A stretch of DNA of 64,000 nucleotides from Heterostelium album PN500 (Eukaryota > Evosea > Eumycetozoa > Acytosteliales > Acytosteliaceae), in NCBI RefSeq assembly GCF_000004825.1, contig NW_008805071.1:1054001-1118000 (forward strand), read 5' to 3'. The notes beneath the pieces are model-generated. The model ran no database searches, was not told where the DNA came from, and worked only from the letters and a program-made list of their open reading frames with translations. The position numbers and the translations under genes were made by a program. Shown here piece after piece: positions 24,944 through 43,052 of this stretch; position 1 is the first letter of the stretch; each line of letters starts with the position of its first letter.

Positions 24944-27900
24944 ATGTCTACACATCAAGTTAACTTTGAGCATTGCGCTCGAAGATGTTTTGAAATGCAT
25001 AACAACAATGAATTGAATGCATTGCTTCAGATAGTGACAGAGATTAGAGATAATATTGAAGTAATACATTCGAGTGAATACAGTTCGTTTCTTCAATTTC
25101 TATTTCCTGTCTTTTATAATATCGTTAGACAAGGGATACCTGTAAGTAAATCAATTACAATACCTTTGTTATTGTTTAATACTAATAACCACTATATCTA
25201 TTTATACTTATATTTGCTGTTGATGATATGATGATCAATGAATAACAACAGGTACAATTCGATGCAAATTCAACAGAACAAAAGATTAGAAATATAATTT
25301 TAGAGATATTGAATAAGCTGCCAAACAATGAGTTGTTGAGGCCGCAAGTTCAACACTTGTTGCAACTTTCAATGTATTTGCTTGAGGTTGACAACGAAGA
25401 TAATGCAATCATCTGTTTGCGTATCATTATGGAGCTGCACAAGAACTACCGTCCTAATCTGGACAGTGAGGTTCAACCGTTTTTAAATATCGTACAAAAG
25501 ATGTACAGTGACTTGCCTGCCACCGTCGACAAGCTCTTTAAACAACCACCACCTGCATTACCAGTTGCCATCGGTGCAGGTAATGCTACAACAACATCTT
25601 CTACACCTGGAATAACTTCGCCAACTGGTGGAGGTGCAGTTGTCGTCGCTACCACTCCAACTGGCGCGCCAACTACAACTACCACCACCGCGCCAACTAC
25701 AACTACCGCCGTTGCCGCCGCCGCCAATACAACATCTTCACCACCACTGGCAGCACCAGGTGCTGGCGGCACAGGACAGCGTATCACTCCGAGTATGTCG
25801 TCATTCAAAGTGATAACGGAATGTCCTGTCATCGTTGTACTTTTATTCCAGTTGTATCAGTCGTCGGTCTCTCCCAACGTCTCCAAGTTCATTCCGCTGA
25901 TTGTCAATACGCTCTCGTTGGTTCCGCCGGCGACCGCTCCCACCACACACCACGCACTCTACGTCGACTTTATCGCTGCGCAAGTCAAGACACTGTCGTT
26001 CCTCGCGTACATCTTGAAGCAGCACATGGATATGGTTCGTCCGTTTATCGACACGCTCCCCAAGTACGTCATCCAGCTGCTCCAATCGTGTCCGGCACAG
26101 TCGTCGGCCATTCGCAAGGAGCTGCTCATCGCAACGCGTTACATTCTCTCGTCGGACCTGAAGATCCGCTTCATCAACTACCTCGACGTGCTGCTCGACG
26201 AGAAGATCCTAATCGGAACATCAAAGACATCGTACGAAACACTGAAATTCATCGCCTACTCGAGTTTGGCAGACTTTATTCATCATATGCGACAAGAGTT
26301 AACACTGACGCACATCGCCAAGGTTGTGACACTCTACTCGAAACACCTACACGATTCGACCAATCATTTTGGCATTCAAACGATTTCCGCCAAGCTATTT
26401 ATCAGTATTGTAGAGTATATTCCAAGAAAACCAGATCCAGAATTCAAGGCTCGTTCAATCATATATAAGATTTTCGAGTCTTTCATTAACAAATTTGTTA
26501 GTCTAAAAAAACAAATTCCACATCTATTGAAACAACAGCAATTAAATCAACAACAACAACAACAGCTACAATTACAACAAACACAACAGACACAACAGCA
26601 GCAAACACAACAACAGCAATCAAATGTAAATACAAATGAAGATAGTTCATCATCATCATCAACATCAACAGCTTCAACAACTTCAACTTCAACAACAACA
26701 ACAACAACAACAACAGCAGCTACAACTACAACAACAACAGCAACAGCTACTACTACTACAACTACTGATACAAGTGGTGGTATGCCAGTTAGTGATCCTG
26801 TAAAGGATTGTAGAGGATTGCTTAAATGTATAATCGGTGGATTCAGAAACACGATTTGGGCATTGAATTCATGTCCGAGTCAGAGACCTATAATGACAGC
26901 AACCGGTCAACAGAATATTCGTTTTGCGCTGCCACCAGTCGATGAATCACTCATGTACATCAAACTATTCAAGAATCTTGTAAAGTGTCTACCGATCTAT
27001 GGAGGTGTCAATCCTGTACCCAACGAAGAGAAGGAGAACCTCGAACACTATGCCAACACACTGCTCCAACTGGACTATCGCACTTTCCAAGAGCTTTTCA
27101 CATCGGTCATGGGATTCCTCTATGAAAAAGCAAGCGAAGACCCAACCCTCTTAATCATTCCACAAGTTCTATTGATATCTCAACCAATACAAACCAATAA
27201 CCCAAGTAAGATATTCTCTGAGATTTTAGCACCCTTTTTAAATGAAAAATTAAAGTAAGTAAAGTTAAGAAATAACAACAACTAATAATATATATACTAA
27301 TTGATATATTGTTATTGGTTATTTAGAAATTTAACACCAAATGATAAACCTGATCCATGTTTAATTAGATTGTTGAAACATCTTTTTGGATCAGTTCAAA
27401 ATGTAAATAATGAAGTGGAACCTGCCATTCATTCGGTTCTGTCCAGTATGATATTGCAGATCATTAAGCTCGCCGTTGAATCGAAACATTCGGATTCGCC
27501 ACACTATTTCATGTTGCTAAAGATTATCTTTAGAAACTGTGCGAAATCCGACTTCCACAAAGACATAACCTTGTTGTTCCCAGCGATTCTCGAGACTCTC
27601 AATGAGTTGCTAACGAGTTCCTATTCACAAGAGATGATCTATCTCTTTATTGAGCTTACACTCATCATCCCGCTGAGAACAAGTTCATTCCTGCCTTGTA
27701 TACATCTGTTGGTTCGTCCGCTGATAATGGCACTGCAATCGAATTCATCGGATCTACTCTCGATTGCATTCAGCACTATTGAGGTGCTCATCGATAATAT
27801 CACCGGTGACTTCCTCCTGAACATATTCAAGGAGCACAAATCAGAGTTTCTCCACTCGATCTGGATACACTTGAAGCCGACGCCATACTTTTTTGGACCG

Positions 27901-30900
27901 CATGCAGTCAGAGTCCTCGGAAAGATGGCCGGAAAAAGTAGAACGCCAACCGTCATCTCTGGAACACCGCTATTCACAAGCAAACAAGTGAATCTCGATA
28001 CCTTTAGATTGTTGATGCCCATCGACTCCGCCACCAACACCCACATCAATGTTTCACTTGACAAGACGATCGAGTCAGCCACCAATCTACTCTACGGAAA
28101 CTCATCGGATTCATTCATTCAGACGAATGCATTCAATCTCCTCAAGTCTATTGTCAGTCTCAAGCTAAACACCAAGGAATCATTGAATTCACATGCATCG
28201 GAAATCTACAATACCATCCAATCGAACAAACAACTCGATAGCAATGTCAGTATAATATTCTCAGATGTCACCACTTCCAATAGTTTATCGATGGACGTGG
28301 TTCCAACTTCTCCTGTTGCCGGTGGAAATACCGGTGGTAGTTCAAATCTAAATTCATCTTCATCCTCTCTCTCTATCACACTGTTGAACACTACCAAGTG
28401 TAAAGATGAGCTGATTGAAGAGAAGCGTGTTATCAAGTTGCTGCTCTCTGGTTTCTTTGTTGCCTACGGTTGTGATGCTCTCAAGAGCGAATCACGTCCG
28501 TTCCTAACAGAGTTAATACATTCGTTCTTCTTGGTGATGTCCACTCGCAGAATGAATAGTCCACTGGCCACTGGCGAACTCAATCCCTATCTCATAATCG
28601 ATTCGTTCATCGAGTTGTTATCACGTCGCAACTCTGAATCCAAGAATGTATTGTCACTCGAAGATCAACACGGTATTCTCGAGATATTCTACAAGACCAT
28701 CAATACTATCTATGGCGCGAGTATCGATAGCTCCGATGGCAGCGCTGATTCACCACCACCCATTTGTAAATATCTCATTGAGTCGTTCATCAATCATTGC
28801 TACCAGAGTCACTACGGACAGAAACATGCTGGCGTTGTTGGTATCCAATTCTTTGTTGGCAAGTATCAAGAGTGTCGTCAATGGATGAACAAATATCAAA
28901 CGCAGCTACTCAAGGCATTGCTACACGTAGTTGACGATCTTACCTATTCCGGTTATCAACCACTCATTGACTACACCAATGAAGTTGTTGAATCGCTTGT
29001 TAAAGCATGTTCTCCAAGTAATTTAATTGTTGAACAACCAATGGATATTGACACAAATAGCAATAACAACACCAATAGCAATGGCAATAGTAATGGTGCT
29101 GCCAATCAAACTATATCATCTCCTGTTTCACCATTGAATGCCAATTCAATTGCAAACACTGAGAGTGTTATGACACCGAGTGTCACAGCTATGGATATTG
29201 AAGCGCAATCCACACCAATTCCACCCACTCCTTCGTTGGCCAATACAATGTTGGACCAAACTCCGGTGAGTATTTCCTCGCCGTCTTCACCAATGACACC
29301 TGCACCCAATGTTGTTCCTCCATCACCTTACAATGCTATGACAACAACCATCTCTACACCAACCACTGTATCAACTTCAACTTCCAACACAGCCAATACA
29401 CCTGCTGCTGTAGCCAGTAGTACTCCTGGACAACCGAATGGACCTGTCCAGCAACCTGCATTACTCCCACCACCACCTCCCATTAAACCACATGCAACAC
29501 TTGCACAACTCGATGAAACACAACGACCACTCTTTAAAGATTTCATCGAGTGTCTATTCCGCTCGTTGTTTGCCTCACAATCTCACACTCGCAAGCTCGT
29601 TCAACAGATGATTCAACTGGTTTCACAAATCACCAATATTCCAATTCACTTGCTACACGACGATCCACGTGCATTCTTTATGAGTATCTTACCCAAGTCG
29701 CTAAAGACTCTCTCGTTTGCCTCTCAGGCCGGTGTGATGGAAGCACTCACTTTTTGCATCGGTCAAAAGGTATCGATGATTCCTTTCAATCAGGAATCGA
29801 TCAAATTCATTCAAGATTGTCATAATATATCGGGTGGCGAAGATCCAAGCATTCAAATCAAAGCAAACTCGCAAAAGAACATCTCGCTTCTCGCCAAGCT
29901 GCGTCAAGCCGGCCTGGAAATGGCTGCCACCGCAATGGCGTGTCCAGAGTTTGTAGCGTATGAGGGTGTCACCGATGTAATGAATCGTATCATTCGTACA
30001 TTCTTCAAGGCAGTCACCATTCGTAACAAAGAGATCGCTGCAGTAGCAAAGCGTGGTCTACACTTGGCAATCTCACAGAACAGAATACACCGTGATCTGC
30101 TACACTTCTGCTTGAAACCGGTGTTGACTAATCTCACTGATCCCAAGAATATATCGGTGCCATTCCTGCAGGGTCTATCGCGACTACTCGAACTGCTATC
30201 GACCTGCTTCAACGCTGCACTTGGAGAACGTCTCTATGAGTATCTCAGAAATTTGACGATACCGGCAAGCTTACTCAAGCGGCCAATCGTTTCAAAGAGA
30301 CTGAAGAGGTGAGAATCTGTGCTGCCATCATTGATACTTTCCATCTCTTGCCGACTGCAGTGAAGCTATTGGAGCAGACAACTGTCCTCACATTGAAACT
30401 CGAACAGCAGTTGGGTCGTGAGGTGAACAGTCCTTATCGTGCGCCACTCATCCGATTCCTTGCGAAATATCCAGCAAAAGCTGTCGATATCTTTATCTCT
30501 CAAGCTTGGACCGTTCCTCAGTCGACTCCACTACTCCCGCAATACGCTACAACCTTCAGGCTGATTGTCAAAGCCGGTGATATCGCTCGTCCCATCGTTG
30601 ACGAGCTAGCCAGGAACTATCAACACTGGATCGATGCTATGTCTACATATAACCCGGACTATCAATTCTTGGCGCTCAGCTTGATCAACACTATCGTCAA
30701 GATCATTCCAAACTGGCTGACTCTTCATCGTCCGATACTCGATCGTCTCATCGATATTTGGCGTCATCCAGGTCGCAAAGGCCAATTGGTGTCCGGTGAT
30801 ATCGTATCGCCAAACCTCATCAAGGAGACCAGAATGATTGTCAAGTGTTTCATTCAGTGTTGTCGATTACACCATGCCGAGAATGAGTTGCTCTTCTACC

Positions 30901-33900
30901 TGTTGTTTGCCTTTACCATTCGTGGTCCAATCGATTTCGCATTCCTGCGTGACTTCTATCAGAATGAACTACCAGAGTCGACCACCGTCGAACAAAAGAT
31001 ATCGATCCTCACTGCCTACCTCGAATTTGCCAAGGCACCGACCACCACTCCAGAACTGAAGGTTCACGCCATTCAGAATATCGTGTCGCCACTCGTTCAA
31101 TCGTTCTTCCAGCACGGTCCAAACGGTGCTCACAAGTCACAGGCAGCCGACGAACTTCTTTCTAATCTGGCACGTCAGTCTCTCCCACTAGAGACAGAGC
31201 CAATCCAAGATGAGACACTCCTGATTGAACTTCTCCAACTGGAGACAACTCTCATAAAGAATGCTCCACAGATTCTCATTGATGTGCGTAAAGAACTTAT
31301 CAAATTCGCATGGAATCACTTTAAGAATGATGATTTCACTTGTCGTCAGACTGCCTATGTTTTGGCGTGTCGATTCATCGAAGCCTATGAAACACCTTCG
31401 AAGATTGTTTTGCAAGTCTACGTACAACTACTGAAAGCATTCCAAATCGAAGCGAAACATCTTGTCAAGCAGGCGTTGGACATTCTAGTTCCCACCTTGA
31501 AAACCAGATTGATTGGTGATAACATTAGAAACACTTGGATCAAATGGACAAAGAAAATCATTGTTGAAGAATCACACACACCTCAACAACTCGTGCATAT
31601 CCTTCAGCTCATTGTCAGACATCCCGTTCTGTTCTATTCCTCACGTGCACAATTCATTCCACAAATGGTCAGTTCGCTTCCAAAGCTGGGATTGGTTTCC
31701 AACATCTCACCGGAGAACAAGAAGTTGTCTATCGATCTCACAGAGTTGATTATCACATGGGAAAAGTGGCGTTTGAATCCTCATCTAATACCTTCGGGTG
31801 CTGGTGTCGCCTCGTCTTCTTCGACCACCACCGGTTCGACACCGTCCACTATCGCTTCGGTTCCACCAGTCACACCAACCACCGAAGTCAGTGTAACAAC
31901 ACCAAGTCAACAGGTAACCACACCGATCACTCAATCGGCAGACGACGAGTATCGCCCACCTGCCAACGTAGTGGAACACATTCTCCAATTCCTCATTAGA
32001 CTCATGACCAATGCAACCGATGCCAAAAACACTGCACTCGTCGAGAAATGTTCTGAACTTTTGCGTCAATCGCTCTCTATTTGGCCGGACGCATCAATCA
32101 AATTCTCGGCGTTTGAGAAATCACTGGCCAGTGACCAAGTTCTCATTCTCTCGACCACTCTAAATATTTTGAATATTATCTTGGAGTATCAGGTTGCCAC
32201 TTTTGTGCCGGCGAATCTTGCCAATCTTCCACAATTCCTACCGTCGATCAACCAAGACAATCCAAAGATTTCTCAGTTGATTTGCTCGATCATCAAGAAG
32301 ATGCTCGTTGCATTCCCGCTTGGTAAGGAGTCGACTCATCCTGACATCATCAGCTTCTACAACTCTGTCTCAACGGCAGTCGGATGGAATCTTTCCAACT
32401 TTGAAAAGAGTTTGAACGTTCAGACACTCTCGCTGATTGCCGTCTTCAAAGAGGATAATCCCGACTGGATCGAACCACACCTACCAAACATCATAAAGAT
32501 CATCCATCGTCTCACTAGCTACTTGCTCAGTCCAGAAACAGTTCCAACCATACCTGTACAACAGCCAGCCAATCCTGTGCCCGCTCAGCAGCAGCCACCA
32601 CGACCGAACCAACCCGCTGCACTCAAACCACCTGCCGCAGCACAAGTCCAATTCCAGCCGAAACGCTCTGAAAAAGAAATCATTGCCGCGCTCTCAAAGT
32701 GTTTCAATTTGATTCGACAAAAGATTACCAAACTCTCTGCCGACCACAAAAAGATATTCCTCCAATCGTTGCTGGTGTTGCTCGAGCGACACAACGATAT
32801 CGAGCTACTCACAGAGTGTCTCAATTTCACCACACAATTGATTACACAAAAGGAGTATGCAGGTGTTTTGCAATCAAAAGAAAAGGTCAATTTCATTTTG
32901 AAGATGAGTCGGTTCGGTCAGTTGGAATCAAAAGACTTGATTGCCTCCTACTTTAATTTGATTCATCAGGTCTATAGTGATCCAACATCGAGTCGTGTTG
33001 AACTCTCACAGTTGGAATCAGGATTTATGCTTGGATTACGCTCACACGATCCAAAGATTAGAAAAGGATTGTTTGAGATATTGCATCGCTCCATCAGCTC
33101 CACTCCATACCAGCGTCTCAACTATATCATTGCCAATCAGCAGTGGGATCAACTTGGAAATACCTATTGGATTAGACACGCGCTAGACTTGCTCATAGCA
33201 ATTCTACCTGTTGGCAAACCTGTATCTCTTGTACAGGGTGTTTCAAAGTTCCAATCGCTCCTACCAAATGTCGCCGGTCAATCTGACGTCGCTCCCAATA
33301 TGCCACTCGGATTCTCAGAGCTACTCAGTGGTCTTGACAAATGGCTAGATACTTGTAAGATCGTATCTGTTGGTGATATTATTTCTAGTTTGCGAGAATT
33401 GATATTCGTTGACAATCAACTCTGTCACAGTTTGTGGGTGTCTATTTTCAGTTCGCTGTGGAGCAAGCTCTCACGTGATGAACACTACAAACTCTCGAAA
33501 TCACTCACTTCCCTCCTCTCCAAAGATTACAACAAGAATGCAACAACAGCAGCTAACAATGTTGAGTCGTCGAACCAGATTATCCAGACGTTGCTAGAGT
33601 CGATATCCAAGTGTACACCTCAACCAAAGGTGCCTGTCGAGGTTATCAGTTATCTTGGTGAACACTTCAACGCGTTCTTCACAGCTATCAAGATGTTGGA
33701 GTTCAATGTTCTCGAGGGAACGAAAACACCGGAACAAACAGAGCCTGTTTGGGATGCACTCGGTTATCTCTATAAAACATTGAACGAACAGGATCTATTG
33801 TTTGGTCTACTACGTCGAAGATTCACATGTGATGAAACTAAACTTGGATTGCTTCTCGAACAGTTCTATATGTTCCAATCCGCTCAGGAAGTCTACTTGG

Positions 33901-36900
33901 CTGCTATGAACAAGTATAGTAGCAACGGTGCGAAAGCAACCAGCAAGAATGAGAATCTACTCTGGGAGGATCATTGGATTGAATGTGCCAAACGTTTGAA
34001 TCAATGGGAAGTACTGTTGGACTATGCACGCTCACAACAGAATATGAATGAGCTGCTAGTCGAATCCTCTTGGAAGTTGTCGGCTTGGCCCATCATGAAA
34101 GAAGCGCTTACAAAGTTGGCACCTCTCGAAGACACTGCCTTTAGAAAGATCCTACAAGGCTATTCACTCATTATCGATAAGCGATTCAGTGATGTCGATC
34201 CAAACATTGTTAATTCGAATCAGTTGATTCTAAAGCGATGGGTCAGTCTTCCGGAACGTTCTTTCCATGCTCACAACAAAGGATTGATTGAAATGCAACA
34301 GGTCGTCGAACTCCAGGAAGCTGTGCATCTGTTGAAGGAAGTTACTCTCTCAAGTCTACCAACTAATCAGCCATCTCGACAAGTACTTGCCAACACCATC
34401 ACCGACGTCAAAGCGATCTTTGCCATCTGGAGAGAACGTCTGCCAAGCAAGGATGAAGACACCGGTGTTTGGAACGATCTCCTCACTTGGCGTCAACAGG
34501 TATTCAGCTTAATTAACCAGGGTGTTGAACAAATCTCAGAGTTTATGAATGTCGGTACCGGTACACCAAACAAACCAATTGTACTACCAGAGACTGCTTG
34601 GACAACCAACAAATATGCACACGTCAATCGTAAGCACCACATAATTGAGCTATGTCTCAATTCACTGTCAAAGATGTTCAATCTTCAAATTGAAGTTCAA
34701 GACATCTTTTTGAATCTCAAAGAGCAAATCAAGTGTTATCTTCAACTTCCAACGCATTATGAAACCGGTATTTCGATTATCAACGGTACAAACTTGGATT
34801 ACTTCTTGCCACTTCAAAAGTCAGAGTTTTTCCAACTGAAAGGTGAATTCCAGAATCGACTCGGTCGCATCAGTGAAGCCAATCTCAACTTCTCGACTGC
34901 CATTCAACTGTTTGATAACCATTCAAAGAGTTGGGTAAATTGGGGTTACTTCTGTGATAAACAATTCACCGGTGAAACCTCTGATCCAGAGATGAAAGCA
35001 TCGTGGGCAGAGAGTGCAATCAATTGCTACATCCAAGGTATTAGATGTGATCCTAGATACGGTACTAAACTTCTTCCAAGAATACTATGGCTACTCTATT
35101 TGAATGGATGTGGTGAAGTACCACATAATATTCCTGTTCCTGCTGCTGCCGCTGCTGCCAACGCTGCCAACGCTGCCAATGCAAATCCAGGAGCACAACC
35201 AACAGCTGCCGATGGTACCAACGCTGCCGATCCAAACACTCCCGCCACTCCAGCAGTCAAGAAACCAACATTGGCACAAACAGTATTCTCTGCCATCGAA
35301 AAGACTGGATCACTCATTATTCCACATTGGTTGTGGTTGAGTTATGTTCCAACTCTTATTACCGGTGCCTACATGAGTGTGCAATTCCAAGGTTATGGAT
35401 TCCTCTGTTGGCAACTCCTCAGTAAGATTTGTTGCTACTATCCAAACTACACATACTATCATTTCAGAAAACTGGTGTCCGATATCAAACTCAATCCAAA
35501 GAATCCCATTCTTACTGCACCTGTACCTGTTGCCAATCCAACCGGACCATCTCCACCAGGCCCACTCAAAATGGCAGAAACACTCTCGGTTGGACTACAG
35601 CCATATCATTCTTGTCTGATCAGTGAAATCGATACAATGTTGAACGGATTCATTCAGTTGGCAAACACCATCCCAGCTGTTCACCACTTTACCGCTTCAT
35701 TGAATCACATTCTCCTCGAGGCATTTAGAATTCAATCAACAGAGGAAGTTCCAACTACAATCCGCGATATGATTAAACAAGTATACCAACACTATTTCTG
35801 TGGTATGGTCACAACCCTAGAGAATACTACTCAGCTTGTAGAGGAATACAAATCTCAATTCGAAGTTGATTTCATTGAGACCGAAGGACAGTCCCTCTCA
35901 AGTTTGATTGTTAAACTCATTGAATGGGTACAAAGAAAACATTCCGTAGAGTTGTGTACAATATACACAAAGGTCGATTCATCTACAACCGTTGCCAATT
36001 ACTATGGACAAAACTCTACGGTTCGATTGGATAGCCTTGTCCCAACACTTGCATCTCTTCGTCCAACGCTACTAGAGGTTCCAAGTATCTACAGGGGATC
36101 ACGTGATCCAAGTGGAGAATACAATATCAAGGTTGAGAGAATCGGTCTGACTGCACAGATGGTGAAGAACTCGAACGGTATGCTCTGTCCAAGAGTTACA
36201 CTGCACGGTATCAACGGTAACGCCTATCCATTCCTCATCGATATAGACACACCGCTCTTCCCAGCAAAGCAAGCACCAAGAACCAGTGAAAGACGTTCAC
36301 AATTCCTTTGTTCCGTAAACAATCTGCTACTCAAGTACCGTGAGACCAGACGTCGTGGTATTACATTCAATCAATATCCAACGTTGATCCCAATCAACAA
36401 CCAAATGAATCTGACTCAGGCAATCGGTGGTAATGAGCTTACCTCGCTCATCAAGGTTTGGTCCAATCAAATTCCAGAACAAGAATTGTATTCGCCACTC
36501 TTGATGTATCGTAACAAACTCTTGGGAAGTCAAGCGGCTACCTCCACCACCTCTGCCACGCCAGAGATGACACCTGCCAACGGAACAACAAAGAGTCACA
36601 AACCCACCAAACTACAAGCATTCCGTGAGATGTCAAAGTACATGACAGACACTCTGTTCTCAAATTACATTCAACGTTATATCTCAACCTACCAAGAGCA
36701 ATATGAATTCAAGCTGGCATTCGCATCACAATGGGGTCTACACTCATTGATTTCCTACATTCTATTCAGTAAGATTGCTACTCTCTCACCATCTGACATC
36801 TATTTCTCAAGAACCTCAGGAACTGTTTATTTCGGTAAATGGAACTCTGAAATATGTACATCAGAAAACTCTGATTTCAACGAACATGGTGTGGTTCCAT

Positions 36901-37389
36901 TCCGTTTAACTCAAAACATTCGAACATTCCTCAATCCTGTATTTATTGAGGGTGGTTATCAGAGTTCATTGTTGGCCACTTCTATGTGTCTTTCGGAATC
37001 AAAGGTAATTTAATCATCACCATTTACAAATAAGCAAAAAATATCAAATAACTAATATTCATTTTTTTTTAAATTAATAGGATCAACTTGTTAACCTTTT
37101 AAGTTGTTACTTATTTGATGAGATACTATGTTGGTACATATCTGAACAAAATTCACAGCAACAACCAATACCTACAGCTCAACTCTTACATAAAGAGATC
37201 TTGGACAAGACAGTAAATGTTGTCAACCAAATGCTAAATGCTAGAATCAATATAATTACTCCACCAACACAACCAGATAAAACTCTATTCCTAACACCAA
37301 TCATCAAGAAAGTCAATGAATTAATTCAACTTTCTTCCAATTCATCAAATATTAGCCAAATGGAATCGATATCCTATCCATGGTTATAA
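24944..37389 (+). CDS. TRRAP: TRRAP/Tra1, giant PIKK-family pseudokinase scaffold (about 4062 aa)
   Basis: Exons 24944-25141, 25252-27254, 27327-37004 and 37081-37389. It starts with HEAT-repeat sequence (NFEHCARRCFEMHNNNELNA; YRPNLDSEVQPFLNIVQKMY), passes through Thr/Gln/Ser-rich spacers, and continues with HEAT/TPR repeats and the FAT domain. The kinase-like domain lacks the usual HRD and DFG catalytic residues (CPRVTLHGINGNAYPFLIDI is where the lobe begins). The C-terminus is a FATC ending SYPWL, as in TRRAP. The protein tethers SAGA and NuA4 acetyltransferases to activators. The frame breaks once at 30252-30254: the upstream frame stops at 30312, and the downstream frame (DDTGKLTQAANRFKETEEVR) is offset by one base. 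Summed exon length is one base short of a multiple of three. Confidence 0.94.
26523..26783 (+). repeat. Gln then Ser/Thr homopolymer tract in TRRAP
   Basis: A CAA/CAG-rich stretch encodes Gln-rich sequence interrupted by Thr and Leu, then (TCA)n and (ACA/ACT)n encode Ser and Thr runs. It lies between two conserved HEAT-repeat blocks and therefore probably forms a disordered spacer typical of dictyostelid proteins. Confidence 0.85.
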
Positions 37390-37661: not shown

Positions 37662-38489
37662 ATGGAAAATAATGATAAAACTAGTAATATAGATTGCGAA
37701 CTTGCAAAAAAAGTTTTAAAGAACAAAGTACTTTTATATAACATAGTTGTTCGTTTACCTTTATTTGAATTGACAAAGAGAAACTGTGTTATCTATTCAA
37801 CACCTGTTGTTTATTCACAGAATATAGAGTGGACCAACAACAATAATAATAATGAGGAAGATAAACATGGGGATACAGAGTTAAGATTGATTAAAGATAT
37901 TTATTCTGGTGTTGTCAATTGTTTTTGTTGGAGTAAGAACAAGGTGCGTCATATCTCTGGTGGCTTCATTGTGCGATTCGATTTTAAGATGGGAAAGGAT
38001 TTCCAACAGCAAGAGACACCACCAGCCGACGGATTTGCTTTCGTGATACACAACGATCCGAGAGGAACATCAGTTCGAAGCAGTTTAACTCATGGAGGGA
38101 GTGGACTTGGCTACACTGGAATAGGATCATCGATTGCCGTGGAATTTGATGACTACCAGTTTAGTGACGATCCAAATGACAATCATATTGCAGTACATAC
38201 TAATGGTGTCGGAATTAACAGCTCAGCACACAAATATGCATTAAGCTTTGCCTCACCTTCATTCAAACTTTGTGATTTCAACTATCATCAAGTAGAGATT
38301 ATATATGAACCATTTGGAAAGCAATTGATAGTAAGAGCAGATCACAACGAAGTTGTTAAAGTTAACATCGATATCAACAATACTATTGGCATTGGTGAAG
38401 ATGATTCTGCATATGTTGGATTTACCGCTGCTTGTGGAGAATACACTCAAAATGTTTTCATTAAGAATTGTTCTATTTATAGATATTAA
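37662..38489 (+). CDS. L-type (legume-like) lectin domain protein without signal peptide (275 aa)
   Basis: Single exon. Residues about 95-275 form an L-type lectin/concanavalin A-like fold, with the signature ADGFAFVIHNDP, a Gly-rich GGSGLGYTGIGSSIAVEFDD strand and the metal-site region DPNDNHIAVHTNG. The Asp of VEFDD and DPNDNH are the residues that usually coordinate Mn/Ca. The last strand has AYVGFTAACGEY as in other family members. The first 90 residues are charged and polar with a short Asn run; no signal peptide or membrane span is seen, so a cytosolic location or unconventional secretion is inferred. ER cargo lectins (ERGIC-53) were considered but lack of signal and membrane anchor argues against them. 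Confidence 0.85.
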   Translation: MENNDKTSNIDCELAKKVLKNKVLLYNIVVRLPLFELTKRNCVIYSTPVVYSQNIEWTNNNNNNEEDKHGDTELRLIKDIYSGVVNCFCWSKNKVRHISGGFIVRFDFKMGKDFQQQETPPADGFAFVIHNDPRGTSVRSSLTHGGSGLGYTGIGSSIAVEFDDYQFSDDPNDNHIAVHTNGVGINSSAHKYALSFASPSFKLCDFNYHQVEIIYEPFGKQLIVRADHNEVVKVNIDINNTIGIGEDDSAYVGFTAACGEYTQNVFIKNCSIYRY

Positions 38490-38607: not shown

Positions 38608-41600
38608 TTACAACTGATTTTTGAGGTGAGAGGACTGATTGGTTTGGTTTAGAGTGTCTGTTGAGTGGATGGATGGTAAAATGGGTGGTTTTGGGTTTAC
38701 TACATTCGTAGAGTTGGTCGGAGAGGATTTGACGACTTCAAAAACTCTATCCGATGGTTCAGCGTTTGATTTATGGTTTTGGGTGGAGTGTGTTGTGTTT
38801 GATGGTGGAACTGATGTTGTTGTGGTAGTGGTAGTGGCGGCGGCTGTTGTGCTTGTCGTAGATGAAGATGGCAAAGTTGTTCCTGAAGCGGATGGTGTTT
38901 GTTTGATGCTATCCAAATAGTCTTTGGCAACGGTATTGAAAAGAGCGACATTCTCCAGGTCACCCTTCTTGTTTGGTTTGCCAATGGTACTGTTTGTGTC
39001 TACATTGTAAATCTTCTTGATGAGTCCGAAATCACCAGAGCTCGCTTGTGAATATAGGATTTCGTTGTTGGAATCCTCTACCAAAGCCTTCAAATGCATT
39101 TGAAGACACTTTTGTAGTGAGTTTCCTTTCTCGATACCATATCCACCTTCGAGTACAGAGATGATTCTACCTCTGCTGTGCTTGGCAGCAACCGCCTTGA
39201 TCATCTTGGTCACTGTGTAGTAATCCTCTTCACTCAACTTCAAACCGTTGGTTGGATCGTCTTTGTGACCGTCGAATCCTGCACTGAGGAAAATCAATTG
39301 TGGTCGGTATGCCTCGAGACGTGGAATGATCTTCTTGGTCCACTGTTGGATGAATGTCGCAGAACCACTGTTTCTCTTGAGACCAATGTTGAGAACGTTA
39401 CCCTCGTAGGAGCCATCCTCGTGGATTTCACCGACATCTCTTCCGGTACCTGGATAAAAGTATCGCTTCTCATCGCAAACATGAATGGAGACAAACAAAA
39501 AGTTATCGTCGCCACTCAAGATCTCTTGAGTTCCGTTACCATGATGTACGTCAAAGTCAACTACAGCAATTCTGGTGTAACCAGCTGTCAATGACGCATA
39601 CTTGGCACCAATAGCAACATTGTTGATGAGACAATAACCTTGTGAAGGTGCGTCGCTGGTACGACCGAAACGACCGGCATGATGACCTGGCGGTCTGATG
39701 GCGCAGAACGTACGATGGTAACCGAGCTTTGTAACTGCATCGACAGCAGCACAAACAGAACCGGCGGCTCTCATGGCAGCCTTCATCGAACGATGACTGA
39801 TAAAAGTATCATAGATATCATCGTCTTCACCACCTTCCTTCTGGGTGACAGTGATCATAGCACCGGTGTTGTCGCTCTCCAAATGAGTCTCCAACTCACT
39901 GTTCTCAGGTGGCAACTGTGTCTCTAACTTACGAATGTAATGAGCGTCGTGAACAGCCATCACATATTTGAGTTCTACCTCGGGTGGAGTATTGTAGACT
40001 TCGACGATCGATGGATACTTGGCAACAAAGTCGTTGATTGTATTGATGGCAACACGTATACGGTCTGGCTTCTCCAAATGGAAATCCGGTACATTATGGT
40101 CCATACAGGCAGTGTGATAGATTGCAAGAGTCTTGAATGGATTCAAGAATGATACCAACTTTTCCTCTTGATTCTCAAGAGTGACCACCGAGCTTTGATC
40201 TTCTTGAGTACTCAACTCTCTTACCATTGCCGGCTTCAGTGAGATTGCAAGTGGAATATCATTACGTGACAAATCAATCTTTTTGTTGATATCAATTATC
40301 TTTTTACAGATAGCTTGTTCACATTTACCAATCTCGGTATTATAGAAGAATTCATGTCCCCAATATACTCCTTCCATCAAACTACATAGAAATGAAACAA
40401 GAAAAGAATAATTAATTAATAATCAACTATAGTTTGCTGCTTCTAATGTTTGTTTTTTATACATACGATAATAATGAATTAAGTGCATTAATTTCATTCT
40501 CAAGAGTTGCTTTTTTAGATCTACAATCCATTTCTCTCTCTGAGATATCATTGTTTGCGAGTAAACCTTCGATCTTGATATCAGAGACTCTCTTGTTAAA
40601 AGTATCTCTGAGACCTTCGAGTTGGGTGAGACCACCACGTACCTTGGCGAGTTGCTCTAGGAGTTCGGTCTCTTGTTGCTTGAGATTGCTAATCTCGCTA
40701 TTGACAGACTTGAGTTGCTCGTCGATGGTGATGAGCTCCTGGTCGAGTCGCTCCTCTTTGTGTTTGTCACGCAGGATGTCCAACTCAAAGTTCTGAGTGA
40801 CCTCTTCGATCGTACGATGTGCACCGTCGATCGCTATCAACAAAATGTTTCTAGTGGAGCTGCTCTCCTTCTCGATCTGATTCGACAGTTGGTGATGGTC
40901 AAACACCCGGGAGATGGCACGTTCCAACGGTTGATTTCTGGTGTTGTTATTCGATGACTTTATTATGGCGTCGTCCATCGATTTGATCTCTTCTTGCATG
41001 GCAATGATCGTCTGTGAACTATCGAGGTTACGCTTGAAGAGGATACCCAACTCTTCGATTGCTCGCCACACCATTTGATAGTCGTTCGACCAACGGATCG
41101 TTCTCAATCTACTGATGGTATTCACCATGTTATTGAACAGCTGGATTGCATCGGCAGGTGGATCTTGCAACAGCGAATTGAAATACTTTATCGAATTGAA
41201 CGATTGGTCAATGAAAAAGTCTACCGGACTGATTGGATCTCTTTCCGGTGCCATAATAGAGTGATATGTATATAAATCAGGTGATGTATCATCATTATTA
41301 TTATTATTATTATTATTACTATTGTTATTATTGTTATTATTATTATTGTTATTATTGTTGTTATTGGTTGGTGATGTAGGTGCAGATGTTTCATCGTCGT
41401 AACCACGTTTACGACCTTTTCTAAAATTGATTTCATAGTCGGGTGTGGAGATTAGCTTTTTCTTACGACGACCGGGACCGGCGAGTGAACCATCGTCGAG
41501 TGTCGGTGCTTGTGTGCCTTGCAGTTGCAGTTGTTGCTGTTGGATCAACTGCGACTGTGACATTGTCGGTGCCAAGTTTGAATGTTTCAATGATAGACGT

Positions 41601-43052
41601 GGCTTACGTGGTTGATTCTGATTGCTGGGTGTCACGATCTCACGAACCCATCTGGTACGCTCTCTCTCCTTGCCACGCAACTTGACGGAATTGCAAACCC
41701 AACATACCCACTTTGGACCGTTCGGTGCATTGCCGTGCTTACCGACAATGATATTGGTGCACGGTTCACAATAACCGAAAGCACAATCATCATTGGCACA
41801 ATGTGACAACGGTTTATAAGATTCACCACAAATACCGCAAACAGTATCTTTATTACCTTTTTCATCAATACAAAACTATAATTATAATAATAATAATGAT
41901 TAATAATAATGATGATTAATAACAATTAAATAATAACAGATCTACTTATAATAATAATGATACTTACACCTTTACCAAGTACTTCATATATTCTCGTTTC
42001 AGATTTAATTGCATGAGTTTTGCAAGTTGGAATTAAACAAGGTCTAAGAATCTTCAATGATCTATCGGCTTTTGAGCATGTTGAATACCAACATGGTCTT
42101 ATCTATATATATAATTTAAAATATTGTTAATATTTGTTTAAAATAGAATATAATAATCATAATAATAACATACATCTAAAGTATTTGGTAGTGATTTCTT
42201 TGATTTTTTACTTTTCTTTTCTGAAATTGGTTCTAATTCAGCTTCGAATGCATCTTCCATGATGTCGTCTTGTACAACTCTTTTTGGTCTACCAACCTTG
42301 TTCTTTGGATTCTCTATTTTCTCTGGTGATTCTTCTTCTTCGTCTCCATATTTTCTTGGTTTCTTGGCGTGTCTCTTGTTTTGTGGTGATTCGATATCTG
42401 TCTTGTTTGGTGTGTTGTTGTTGTTATTGTTATTATTTGAAGACGATGATGAAGTTGTTGTTGTTGTAGTTGTTGTGGCAGTTGGTGTTGTTGTTGTTAA
42501 TGATGGAGAAGGAATTGATTGTTGTGACTGTGATGATGATGATTGTTGTGTTGGTTGTTGTGATTGTTGTTGCTGTTGTAATTCAGCAGCTTTCTGCGCT
42601 TCCAACAACATTCTCTTTTTGATATTCTTTAATTTTGGTTTTCTTCCACGTTTCTTTGGTTCTGGATTTACTGGAGTCTGTGCGTTGGCGTCGGTCATAA
42701 GATCGTCGTCTTCGTCATTCTGTTTGTCAGCCTTGTTGCCAGTGGCATTGGATTCGTCATAGTCTGACAACTCCTCCTCAGACTCTGGCTCGTCGTCTGA
42801 CCAATTCTCCAGTTCGCCAAACTCCTCGTCGGCATCGCCACGAATCTTGGCGGTCTTTCGCGATCTCTTGAGCGAACCCGGTGTATTGTCAACAGAGAGC
42901 GGTTCCTCTACTATCGATTTGTCTTCCATTTGATTGGTGGACATATTATTGGTTGATGATACAGGTTGTACCGTTGCTGTATTACTATTGTTTGTTGTCG
43001 TTGTTGTTGTATTATTATTTGGATTGGAATGATTATTAACTAAATCATCCAT
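38608..43052 (-). CDS. Class II-type histone deacetylase fused to AT-hooks and an ADD-like zinc finger (1398 aa)
   Basis: Exons 43052-42174, 42102-41968, 41875-40467 and 40381-38608 join in frame. Exon 1 is Asn/Thr/Gln-rich and acidic with two AT-hook-like motifs (KKRGRKPKLK, KVGRPKR). Exons 2-3 encode a Cys-rich module: CWYSTC and CLIPTC pairs, then CGIC-x9-C-x4-C-x4-C-x2-C-x18-CWVC, the spacing of the ADD PHD finger of DNMT3/ATRX. An Asn run and a coiled coil (about residues 700-800) follow. The deacetylase domain in exon 4 has RPPGHHA, DFDVHHGNGTQ, SAGFDGHKDDP and LEGGYG, so zinc ligands and catalytic Tyr are present. The C-terminal tail is Ser/Thr-rich. Inferred role: DNA- or histone-tail-targeted deacetylation. 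Confidence 0.88.

What the first reader, a model, noticed from the sequence alone, without database searches (positions are those of the whole stretch)
38608..43052. Histone deacetylase fused to AT-hooks and an ADD-type zinc finger
The Cys spacing CGIC-x9-C-x4-C-x4-C-x2-C-x18-CWVC equals the ADD PHD finger of DNMT3/ATRX, which reads unmodified H3K4. A single protein with AT-hooks, an ADD-like reader, a coiled coil and an intact deacetylase would couple chromatin reading to deacetylation. I know of no animal or plant HDAC with this arrangement.
Basis: partly seen in the sequence, partly recalled or inferred. Interest (0 to 1): 0.7.

Follow-up and report, generated by a model that had tools for sequence, protein, structure and literature searches.

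The report
Histone deacetylase with DNMT3-type zinc finger

Summary
Minus-strand exons 43052-42174, 42102-41968, 41875-40467 and 40381-38608 splice at GT..AG introns of 71, 92 and 85 nt into 1,398 aa. The C-terminal half is a class II-type deacetylase with the six expected active-site residues. A same-genome paralogue continues through the exon 3/4 boundary, supporting one protein.

The Cys spacing is exact. The PHD half resembles DNMT3 ADD: 12 of 13 PDB hits at E<=1 are DNMT3L/3B/3A. Pfam's DNMT3 ADD PHD model gives E 3.4e-5 to 0.0064 by query length, always below its curated cut-off. Cys-fixed shuffles give no DNMT3 match in Pfam (0 of 9) or the PDB (0 of 3). Canonical PHD and CDCA7-type models miss it; so do two further ADD models.

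The N-terminal four-Cys finger is unrecognised and lacks C-x2-C spacing. Of three H3K4 contacts one is kept (D342); the others are K344 and D348. AlphaFold2 was uninformative. AT-hooks are weak.

Verdict: a real deacetylase with an ADD-type PHD finger; full ADD and H3K4me0 reading unproven. New variant of a known kind.

The parts
42174..43052 (-). exon 1, aa 1-293: low-complexity acidic/basic N-terminus with two AT-hook-like basic motifs (aa 135 RGRKP; aa 254 GRPKR)
   Evidence: gene model, motif scan; no Pfam AT-hook hit at E<=10
41968..42102 (-). exon 2, aa 294-338: four-Cys finger C297-x4-C302-x12-C315-x4-C320 in the place of the ADD GATA-like finger
   Evidence: 0 Pfam families at E<=10 for this exon with six residues of exon 1
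41633..41875 (-). start of exon 3, aa 339-419: ADD-type C4-C4 PHD finger (aa 351-399) plus following charged, possibly helical stretch
   Evidence: Pfam PF21255 E 1.3e-4 (99 aa) and 3.4e-5 (62 aa), both below the curated cut-off; PDB phmmer top 12 of 13 hits DNMT3L/3B/3A, best E 7.6e-5
40467..41632 (-). rest of exon 3, aa 420-808: Asn-rich linker, then helical/coiled-coil region with heptad signal about aa 699-776
   Evidence: 0 of 200 shuffles reach the heptad score; last part colinear with the paralogue
38608..40381 (-). exon 4, aa 809-1398: linker, class II-type deacetylase domain (aa 909-1240), low-complexity C-terminal tail
   Evidence: Pfam PF00850 E 9.4e-74; H1041 H1042 D1085 H1087 D1178 Y1222
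42103..42173 (-). intron 1, 71 nt, GT..AG
41876..41967 (-). intron 2, 92 nt, GT..AG, splits the Cys-rich region between its two fingers
40382..40466 (-). intron 3, 85 nt, GT..AG, between coiled coil and deacetylase
   Evidence: the paralogue reads through this point in one open frame

Best explanation
One nuclear protein couples a histone-tail reader of the DNMT3 ADD type to an active class II-type histone deacetylase. Proposed mechanism: the basic AT-hook-like N-terminus gives general DNA contact, the ADD-type PHD finger docks on the N-terminus of histone H3, the coiled coil makes it a dimer or oligomer, and the deacetylase removes acetyl groups from the same or a neighbouring tail. By analogy with DNMT3 ADD the preferred ligand would be an H3 tail not trimethylated at K4, so active H3K4me3 promoters would be spared and other chromatin deacetylated. 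Shown here: gene structure, deacetylase with its active-site residues, DNMT3-ADD-like PHD finger, heptad repeat. Inferred: fold, zinc binding, H3 binding, K4 sensitivity, oligomer, nuclear site, substrate.
For: Deacetylase Pfam E 9.4e-74 with the His-His, Asp-His-Asp and Tyr residues kept (roles recalled). PHD half: of 13 distinct PDB sequences at E<=1, the best 12 are DNMT3L, DNMT3B or DNMT3A (several being constructs of one protein) and the 13th is a GATA factor at E 0.41; the alignment runs on into the stretch after the PHD. Pfam lists DNMT3 ADD PHD first among finger families. 0 of 9 Cys-fixed shuffles give a DNMT3 match in Pfam and 0 of 3 in the PDB. The canonical PHD model lists 31 matches in this genome and not this one. 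Junction: residues 770-850 align to the C4 paralogue without a gap across the exon 3/4 boundary, score 56, reached by 0 of 500 shuffles; the 20 exon-3 residues before the junction rank 1 of 410 offsets. Context: DNMT3A ADD binds H3K4me0 through D529, D531 and Q534 (PMC6316889, passages); HDAC1 is recruited by the PHD domain of DNMT3L (PMC5807744, passages).
Against: Pfam scores stay below the curated cut-off (17.1-24.3 against 27 bits); another, surely spurious family reaches E 0.0088 elsewhere in the same protein; in a six-frame search of the genome an antisense frame scores slightly higher than this finger (23.5 against 23.1 bits). ADD_ATRX and ADD_DNMT3 models do not match here, and exon 2 matches nothing. 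By the alignment, D529 corresponds to D342, but D531 to K344 and Q534 to D348 next to a one-residue insertion. Single-sequence AlphaFold2 gave pLDDT 41.6 and 40.3, useless either way. Over longer stretches the paralogue match in the helical region is weak (7 and 10 of 500 shuffles reach it), and each side of the junction alone is not significant in a free search (171 and 51 of 500). In D. discoideum the H3K4me3-acetylation link was traced to the acetyltransferase side (Sgf29; PMC8053100, passages and Discussion read), not to an excluded deacetylase.
Confidence: 0.5

Rival explanations
1. The finger is ADD-like in descent, but no longer reads H3K4: it serves as a protein-protein docking module or an autoinhibitory module for the deacetylase, and targeting comes from DNA contact or partners.
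For: K344 and D348 stand where D531 and Q534 are reported to contact K4; the four-Cys partner finger is altered. In DNMT3A the same loop also works as an autoinhibitory element (PMC6316889, passages).
Against: One acidic contact and a neighbouring acid are kept (D342, E343), and an acid (D348) lies near the Q534 position, so a lysine pocket could persist in altered form.
Confidence: 0.33
2. Not an ADD relative at all but a convergent Cys-rich finger (CDCA7-type, ZZ-, RING- or PHD-like) whose spacing happens to look like DNMT3.
For: Pfam score under cut-off; weak secondary matches to CEBP_ZZ (0.012) and zf-RING_2 (0.13); noise in the genome reaches the same Pfam score; ADD_ATRX and ADD_DNMT3 models do not match.
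Against: The 12 best PDB hits are DNMT3 proteins; the CDCA7-type model lists 5 matches in this genome and not this one; Cys-fixed shuffles do not reproduce it.
Confidence: 0.12
3. Two separate genes: an ADD-like/coiled-coil protein (exons 1-3) and a deacetylase beginning at the Met just inside exon 4.
For: Exon 4 has an in-frame ATG starting at its fifth base, and exon 3's frame stops just inside intron 3. No transcripts were available.
Against: Only 85 nt separate them, with GT..AG ends and GC 0.22; the paralogue encodes both sides of the junction in one open frame and aligns without a gap.
Confidence: 0.05

Closest known systems
ADD domain of DNMT3L / DNMT3B / DNMT3A
   Same: C4-C4 PHD finger with the same C-x2-C ... 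C-x4-C ... C-x2-C ... C-x2-C ligand pattern; nearest sequences in the PDB; alignment continues past the PHD
   Different: N-terminal finger C-x4-C-x12-C-x4-C instead of C-x2-C-x16-C-x2-C (read from the DNMT3L letters; which Cys bind zinc is recalled), though the outer Cys-Cys distance is 23 in both; 30 instead of 19 residues between the two fingers; K4 contacts changed; attached to a deacetylase, not a methyltransferase
Class II-type histone deacetylases (animal HDAC6, plant HDA15, yeast HDA1, bacterial relatives)
   Same: Whole Pfam domain and active-site residues; PDB hits include HDAC6 domains, the bacterial 5ji5, HDA15, HDAC4, HDA1 and clr3
   Different: None of the named relatives carries a DNMT3-like finger as far as I recall; the best single-domain PDB score is 5ji5 (170.9 bits), against at most 128.4 for single-domain HDAC6 entries
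Dictyostelium discoideum HdaD
   Same: A social-amoeba deacetylase shown to act on H3K27ac and needed for timely multicellular development (PMC8094536, passages)
DNMT3L-HDAC1 partnership
   Same: PHD part of an ADD linked to histone deacetylation (PMC5807744, passages)
   Different: There two proteins in trans; here one polypeptide

Membership tests
Zn-dependent histone deacetylase, class II type | Complete Hist_deacetyl domain over curated cut-off | tested here: met
   PF00850 248.9 bits, cut-off 27.9, profile 1-297 of 298
Zn-dependent histone deacetylase, class II type | His-His dyad, Asp-His-Asp zinc ligands, catalytic Tyr | tested here: met
   H1041 H1042, D1085 H1087 D1178, Y1222; residue roles recalled
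Zn-dependent histone deacetylase, class II type | Deacetylase activity | not testable with these tools
   needs enzyme assay
ADD domain (ATRX-DNMT3-DNMT3L) | PHD finger with eight Cys in ADD spacing (no His ligand) | tested here: met
   Cys 351, 354, 364, 369, 374, 377, 396, 399
ADD domain (ATRX-DNMT3-DNMT3L) | Profile match to ADD models | tested here: inconclusive
   PF21255 E 3.4e-5 to 0.0064 depending on query length, 17.1-24.3 bits against cut-off 27; PDB phmmer DNMT3L 7.6e-5; PF17981 ADD_ATRX and PF17980 ADD_DNMT3 do not match this locus at E<=5
ADD domain (ATRX-DNMT3-DNMT3L) | N-terminal GATA-like finger (C-x2-C ... C-x2-C) | tested here: not met
   four Cys present but spaced C-x4-C-x12-C-x4-C; exon 2 alone 0 Pfam families
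ADD domain (ATRX-DNMT3-DNMT3L) | C-terminal helix after the PHD | tested here: inconclusive
   alignment to DNMT3L extends through RGKERERTRWVREI; no usable structure
ADD domain (ATRX-DNMT3-DNMT3L) | H3K4me0 contacts D529, D531, Q534 of DNMT3A | tested here: inconclusive
   equivalents D342, K344, D348 by the alignment to DNMT3L (DNMT3A-to-DNMT3L correspondence recalled); contacts from PMC6316889 (passages)
Canonical C4HC3 PHD finger | PF00628 match | tested here: not met
   31 matches listed in the genome at E<=5, not this one; not listed for the protein at E<=10
CDCA7-type zf-4CXXC_R1 | PF10497 match | tested here: not met
   5 matches listed at E<=5, not this one
AT-hook | RGRP core in a basic setting, profile match | tested here: inconclusive
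   GRPKR at 254 and RGRKP at 135; no Pfam hit at E<=10, though so short a profile can be missed

The most novel reading that the evidence does not exclude
An ADD-type reader works outside DNA methylation: in a genome whose only cytosine-methylase match found is DNMT2-like, an ADD-HDAC fusion reads histone H3 without K4 trimethylation and deacetylates there directly, forming the counterpart of the Sgf29-Gcn5 H3K4me3 reader-acetyltransferase. ADD would then be an old chromatin reader later recruited by animal DNMT3.
Probability: 0.3. Interest if true: 0.72.

Novelty: new variant of a known kind. Interest (0 to 1): 0.52.

Why it matters
A reader and an eraser in one polypeptide would make the link between H3K4 state and deacetylation a one-gene experiment, in D. 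discoideum if its orthologue shares the finger. It would also bear on the origin of ADD, which a 2025 survey describes in animal DNMT3s but not in protist or algal DNMT3s (PMC12344493, passages).

Tried and rejected

Relatives: viral contigs and genome contigs gave no relative of the finger at tblastn E<=1e-3; both need near-exact peptide seeds and hold no eukaryotic collection. Metagenome scans were capped at zero and not tried. Conservation in other amoebae could therefore not be tested. The own-genome search with the finger found only this gene at E<=1. PF21255 matches on C17 and C28: C17 lies antisense to a 415-aa frame and was taken as noise; C28 (E 0.15) was fetched (L018) but not read. 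The other deacetylase genes on C3, C8 and C30 were fetched (L015-L017) but not read; only the C4 paralogue was compared.

Canonical PHD and CDCA7-type fingers were considered and rejected. Two genes were considered and rejected. A bacterial contaminant was rejected because of three introns, amoeba-style low-complexity runs and an in-genome paralogue (inference).

Literature: in ten searches (the last two aimed at H3K4 questions) I saw titles and abstract starts of the listed papers only, e.g. 20 of 1,167, 20 of 48, 20 of 25, 10 of 24; none names an ADD-deacetylase fusion. Seven papers were opened, as passages found by term, one of them also in one section. The library lacks most subscription papers, and UniProt, InterPro or dictyBase could not be consulted, so the architecture may already be recorded there.
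Full report
What is there. On the minus strand four exons (43052-42174, 42102-41968, 41875-40467, 40381-38608) join into an open frame of 1,398 codons plus stop; the introns are 71, 92 and 85 nt, begin GT and end AG and have GC 0.10, 0.13 and 0.22 against 0.33-0.44 in the exons. The window lies in a 32.9-Mb assembly of 39 contigs that the tools leave unnamed.

Deacetylase. Residues 909-1240 match Hist_deacetyl over nearly the whole profile at E 9.4e-74. The His-His pair, the Asp-His-Asp zinc set and the Tyr are H1041, H1042, D1085, H1087, D1178 and Y1222 (roles recalled). PDB relatives include HDAC6, HDA15, HDAC4, HDA1, clr3 and bacterial class II-type enzymes; the best single-domain score is the bacterial 5ji5 at 170.9 bits, against at most 128.4 for single-domain HDAC6 entries. 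The genome has 8 Hist_deacetyl matches at five places. The one on C4, the only one compared, is 55% identical over 222 aligned residues of the domain core (121 of 222) and shows no such finger in its deacetylase-bearing frame.

One protein or two. Exon 4 could in principle start its own gene, since an in-frame ATG begins at its fifth base and exon 3's frame stops just inside intron 3. Against this, in the C4 paralogue the corresponding stretch is a single open frame, and residues 770-850 align with it across the junction without a gap (score 56; 0 of 500 shuffles reach it). The exon-3 side alone is not significant in a free search (171 of 500 shuffles reach it), nor the exon-4 side alone (51 of 500), but at the register fixed by the junction the 20 residues before it rank first of 410 offsets. 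Over longer stretches the helical region is only weakly conserved (7 of 500 and 10 of 500 shuffles reach the score). I take one protein as very likely, not proven.

The finger. For the 99 residues from exon 3, 13 of 177,635 distinct PDB sequences reach E<=1: the first 12 are DNMT3L, DNMT3B and DNMT3A, several being constructs of one protein, and the last is a GATA factor at E 0.41. In Pfam the best finger match is PF21255, described as the DNMT3 ADD PHD zinc finger, with E 0.0064 for the whole protein, 2.6e-4 for 150 aa, 1.3e-4 for 99 aa and 3.4e-5 for 62 aa, in every case below the curated cut-off of 27 bits. Nine shuffles that keep the Cys in place give no DNMT3 match in Pfam (7 of 9 nothing, 2 of 9 one unrelated weak hit each), and three give none in the PDB (unrelated hits at E 0.62 and 0.044, and nothing). 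Across the genome, canonical PHD (31 matches) and CDCA7-type (5 matches) models do not list this locus.

Results against ADD. Two further ADD models also miss it: ADD_ATRX lists nothing in the genome and ADD_DNMT3 lists one other, weak place (E 0.32). The six-frame PF21255 search ranks an antisense frame on C17 just above this finger (23.5 against 23.1 bits), and a spurious family reaches E 0.0088 elsewhere in the same protein. So the Pfam score alone would not carry the case; the PDB result and the complete eight-Cys spacing do.

What is missing from a full ADD. The review PMC6316889 (passages) describes ADD as GATA-like finger, PHD finger and C-terminal helix. Here the finger before the PHD has C-x4-C-x12-C-x4-C instead of the C-x2-C-x16-C-x2-C that the DNMT3L letters show. 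The outer Cys are 23 residues apart in both, but 30 instead of 19 residues separate the two fingers, and exon 2 alone matches no Pfam family. The alignment to DNMT3L runs past the PHD through RGKERERTRWVREI, where the ADD helix should lie. So I file it as an ADD-type PHD finger with an unrecognised partner finger, not as a complete ADD.

What it may bind. DNMT3A ADD holds unmethylated K4 with D529, D531 and Q534. By the alignment these positions are D342, K344 and D348 here, with a one-residue insertion between. A lysine pocket may persist in altered form or may be gone. AlphaFold2 without relatives could not help.

Mechanism. My best reading is reader plus eraser in one chain: docking of the finger on the H3 N-terminus, oligomer through the coiled coil (heptad signal, 0 of 200 shuffles), deacetylation nearby. 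The genome has 20 SET matches at E<=1e-5, so histone lysine methylation is plausible, and the only cytosine-methylase place found at E<=1 (two matches on C2) is DNMT2-like by PDB match, so no DNMT3 was found that the finger could serve. In D. discoideum, HdaD removes H3K27ac and its loss delays multicellularity (PMC8094536, passages); loss of set1 lowers H3K9/14 acetylation (stated with a citation in PMC13186565, passages). The second fact would fit a deacetylase kept off H3K4me-marked tails, but another study assigns the K4me3-acetylation link to Sgf29 on the acetyltransferase side (PMC8053100, passages and Discussion read). Whether this gene is the orthologue of hdaC or hdaD is untested.

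Novelty. I found no description of an ADD-deacetylase fusion among the titles and abstract starts listed by ten library searches, which miss most subscription papers and all sequence databases. Linking ADD to deacetylation in trans is known: HDAC1 is recruited by the PHD domain of DNMT3L (PMC5807744, passages). The single-chain form would be a new variant of a known kind.

Noticed in passing
window 38608-40381 and L027-L106: The deacetylase domain core is 46-51% identical over about 210 residues to proteobacterial class II-type deacetylases (six of 80 fetched loci compared; tblastn gives 39-48% for the 80), close to the 55% with its C4 paralogue. Both amoeba copies share a stretch AGRxGxTxxxxSQG absent from the six. 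No tree was made.
   Followed up: partly
window 30240-35039: Plus-strand Tra1/TRRAP-like gene (Tra1_ring E 1.1e-291, FAT 6.9e-43), an acetyltransferase-complex subunit by family; adjoining plus-strand frames (25309-30312, 35040-37389) may belong to it but 35040-37010 matched no family and the others were not scanned. One gene lies between it and the deacetylase. Probably chance.
   Followed up: partly
window 37662-38489: Legume/L-type lectin-domain gene (PF18483 5.5e-20, below its cut-off; PF00139 8.6e-15, above) ends 118 bp from the deacetylase stop, convergent.
   Followed up: partly
L014 4408-4103, minus strand: Upstream of the C4 deacetylase paralogue sits a short frame with a zinc ribbon like InsA (PF03811 E 0.0013, below cut-off). 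It may be a separate gene or, if a possible GTAACT..AATAG intron further down is real, a 5' exon of the paralogue, which would give it a different N-terminal finger.
   Followed up: partly
G000 C2, C5, C17, C28: Five CDCA7-type zf-4CXXC_R1 matches (best E 3.4e-9; two adjacent on C5) in a genome whose only cytosine-methylase place found is DNMT2-like.
   Followed up: no
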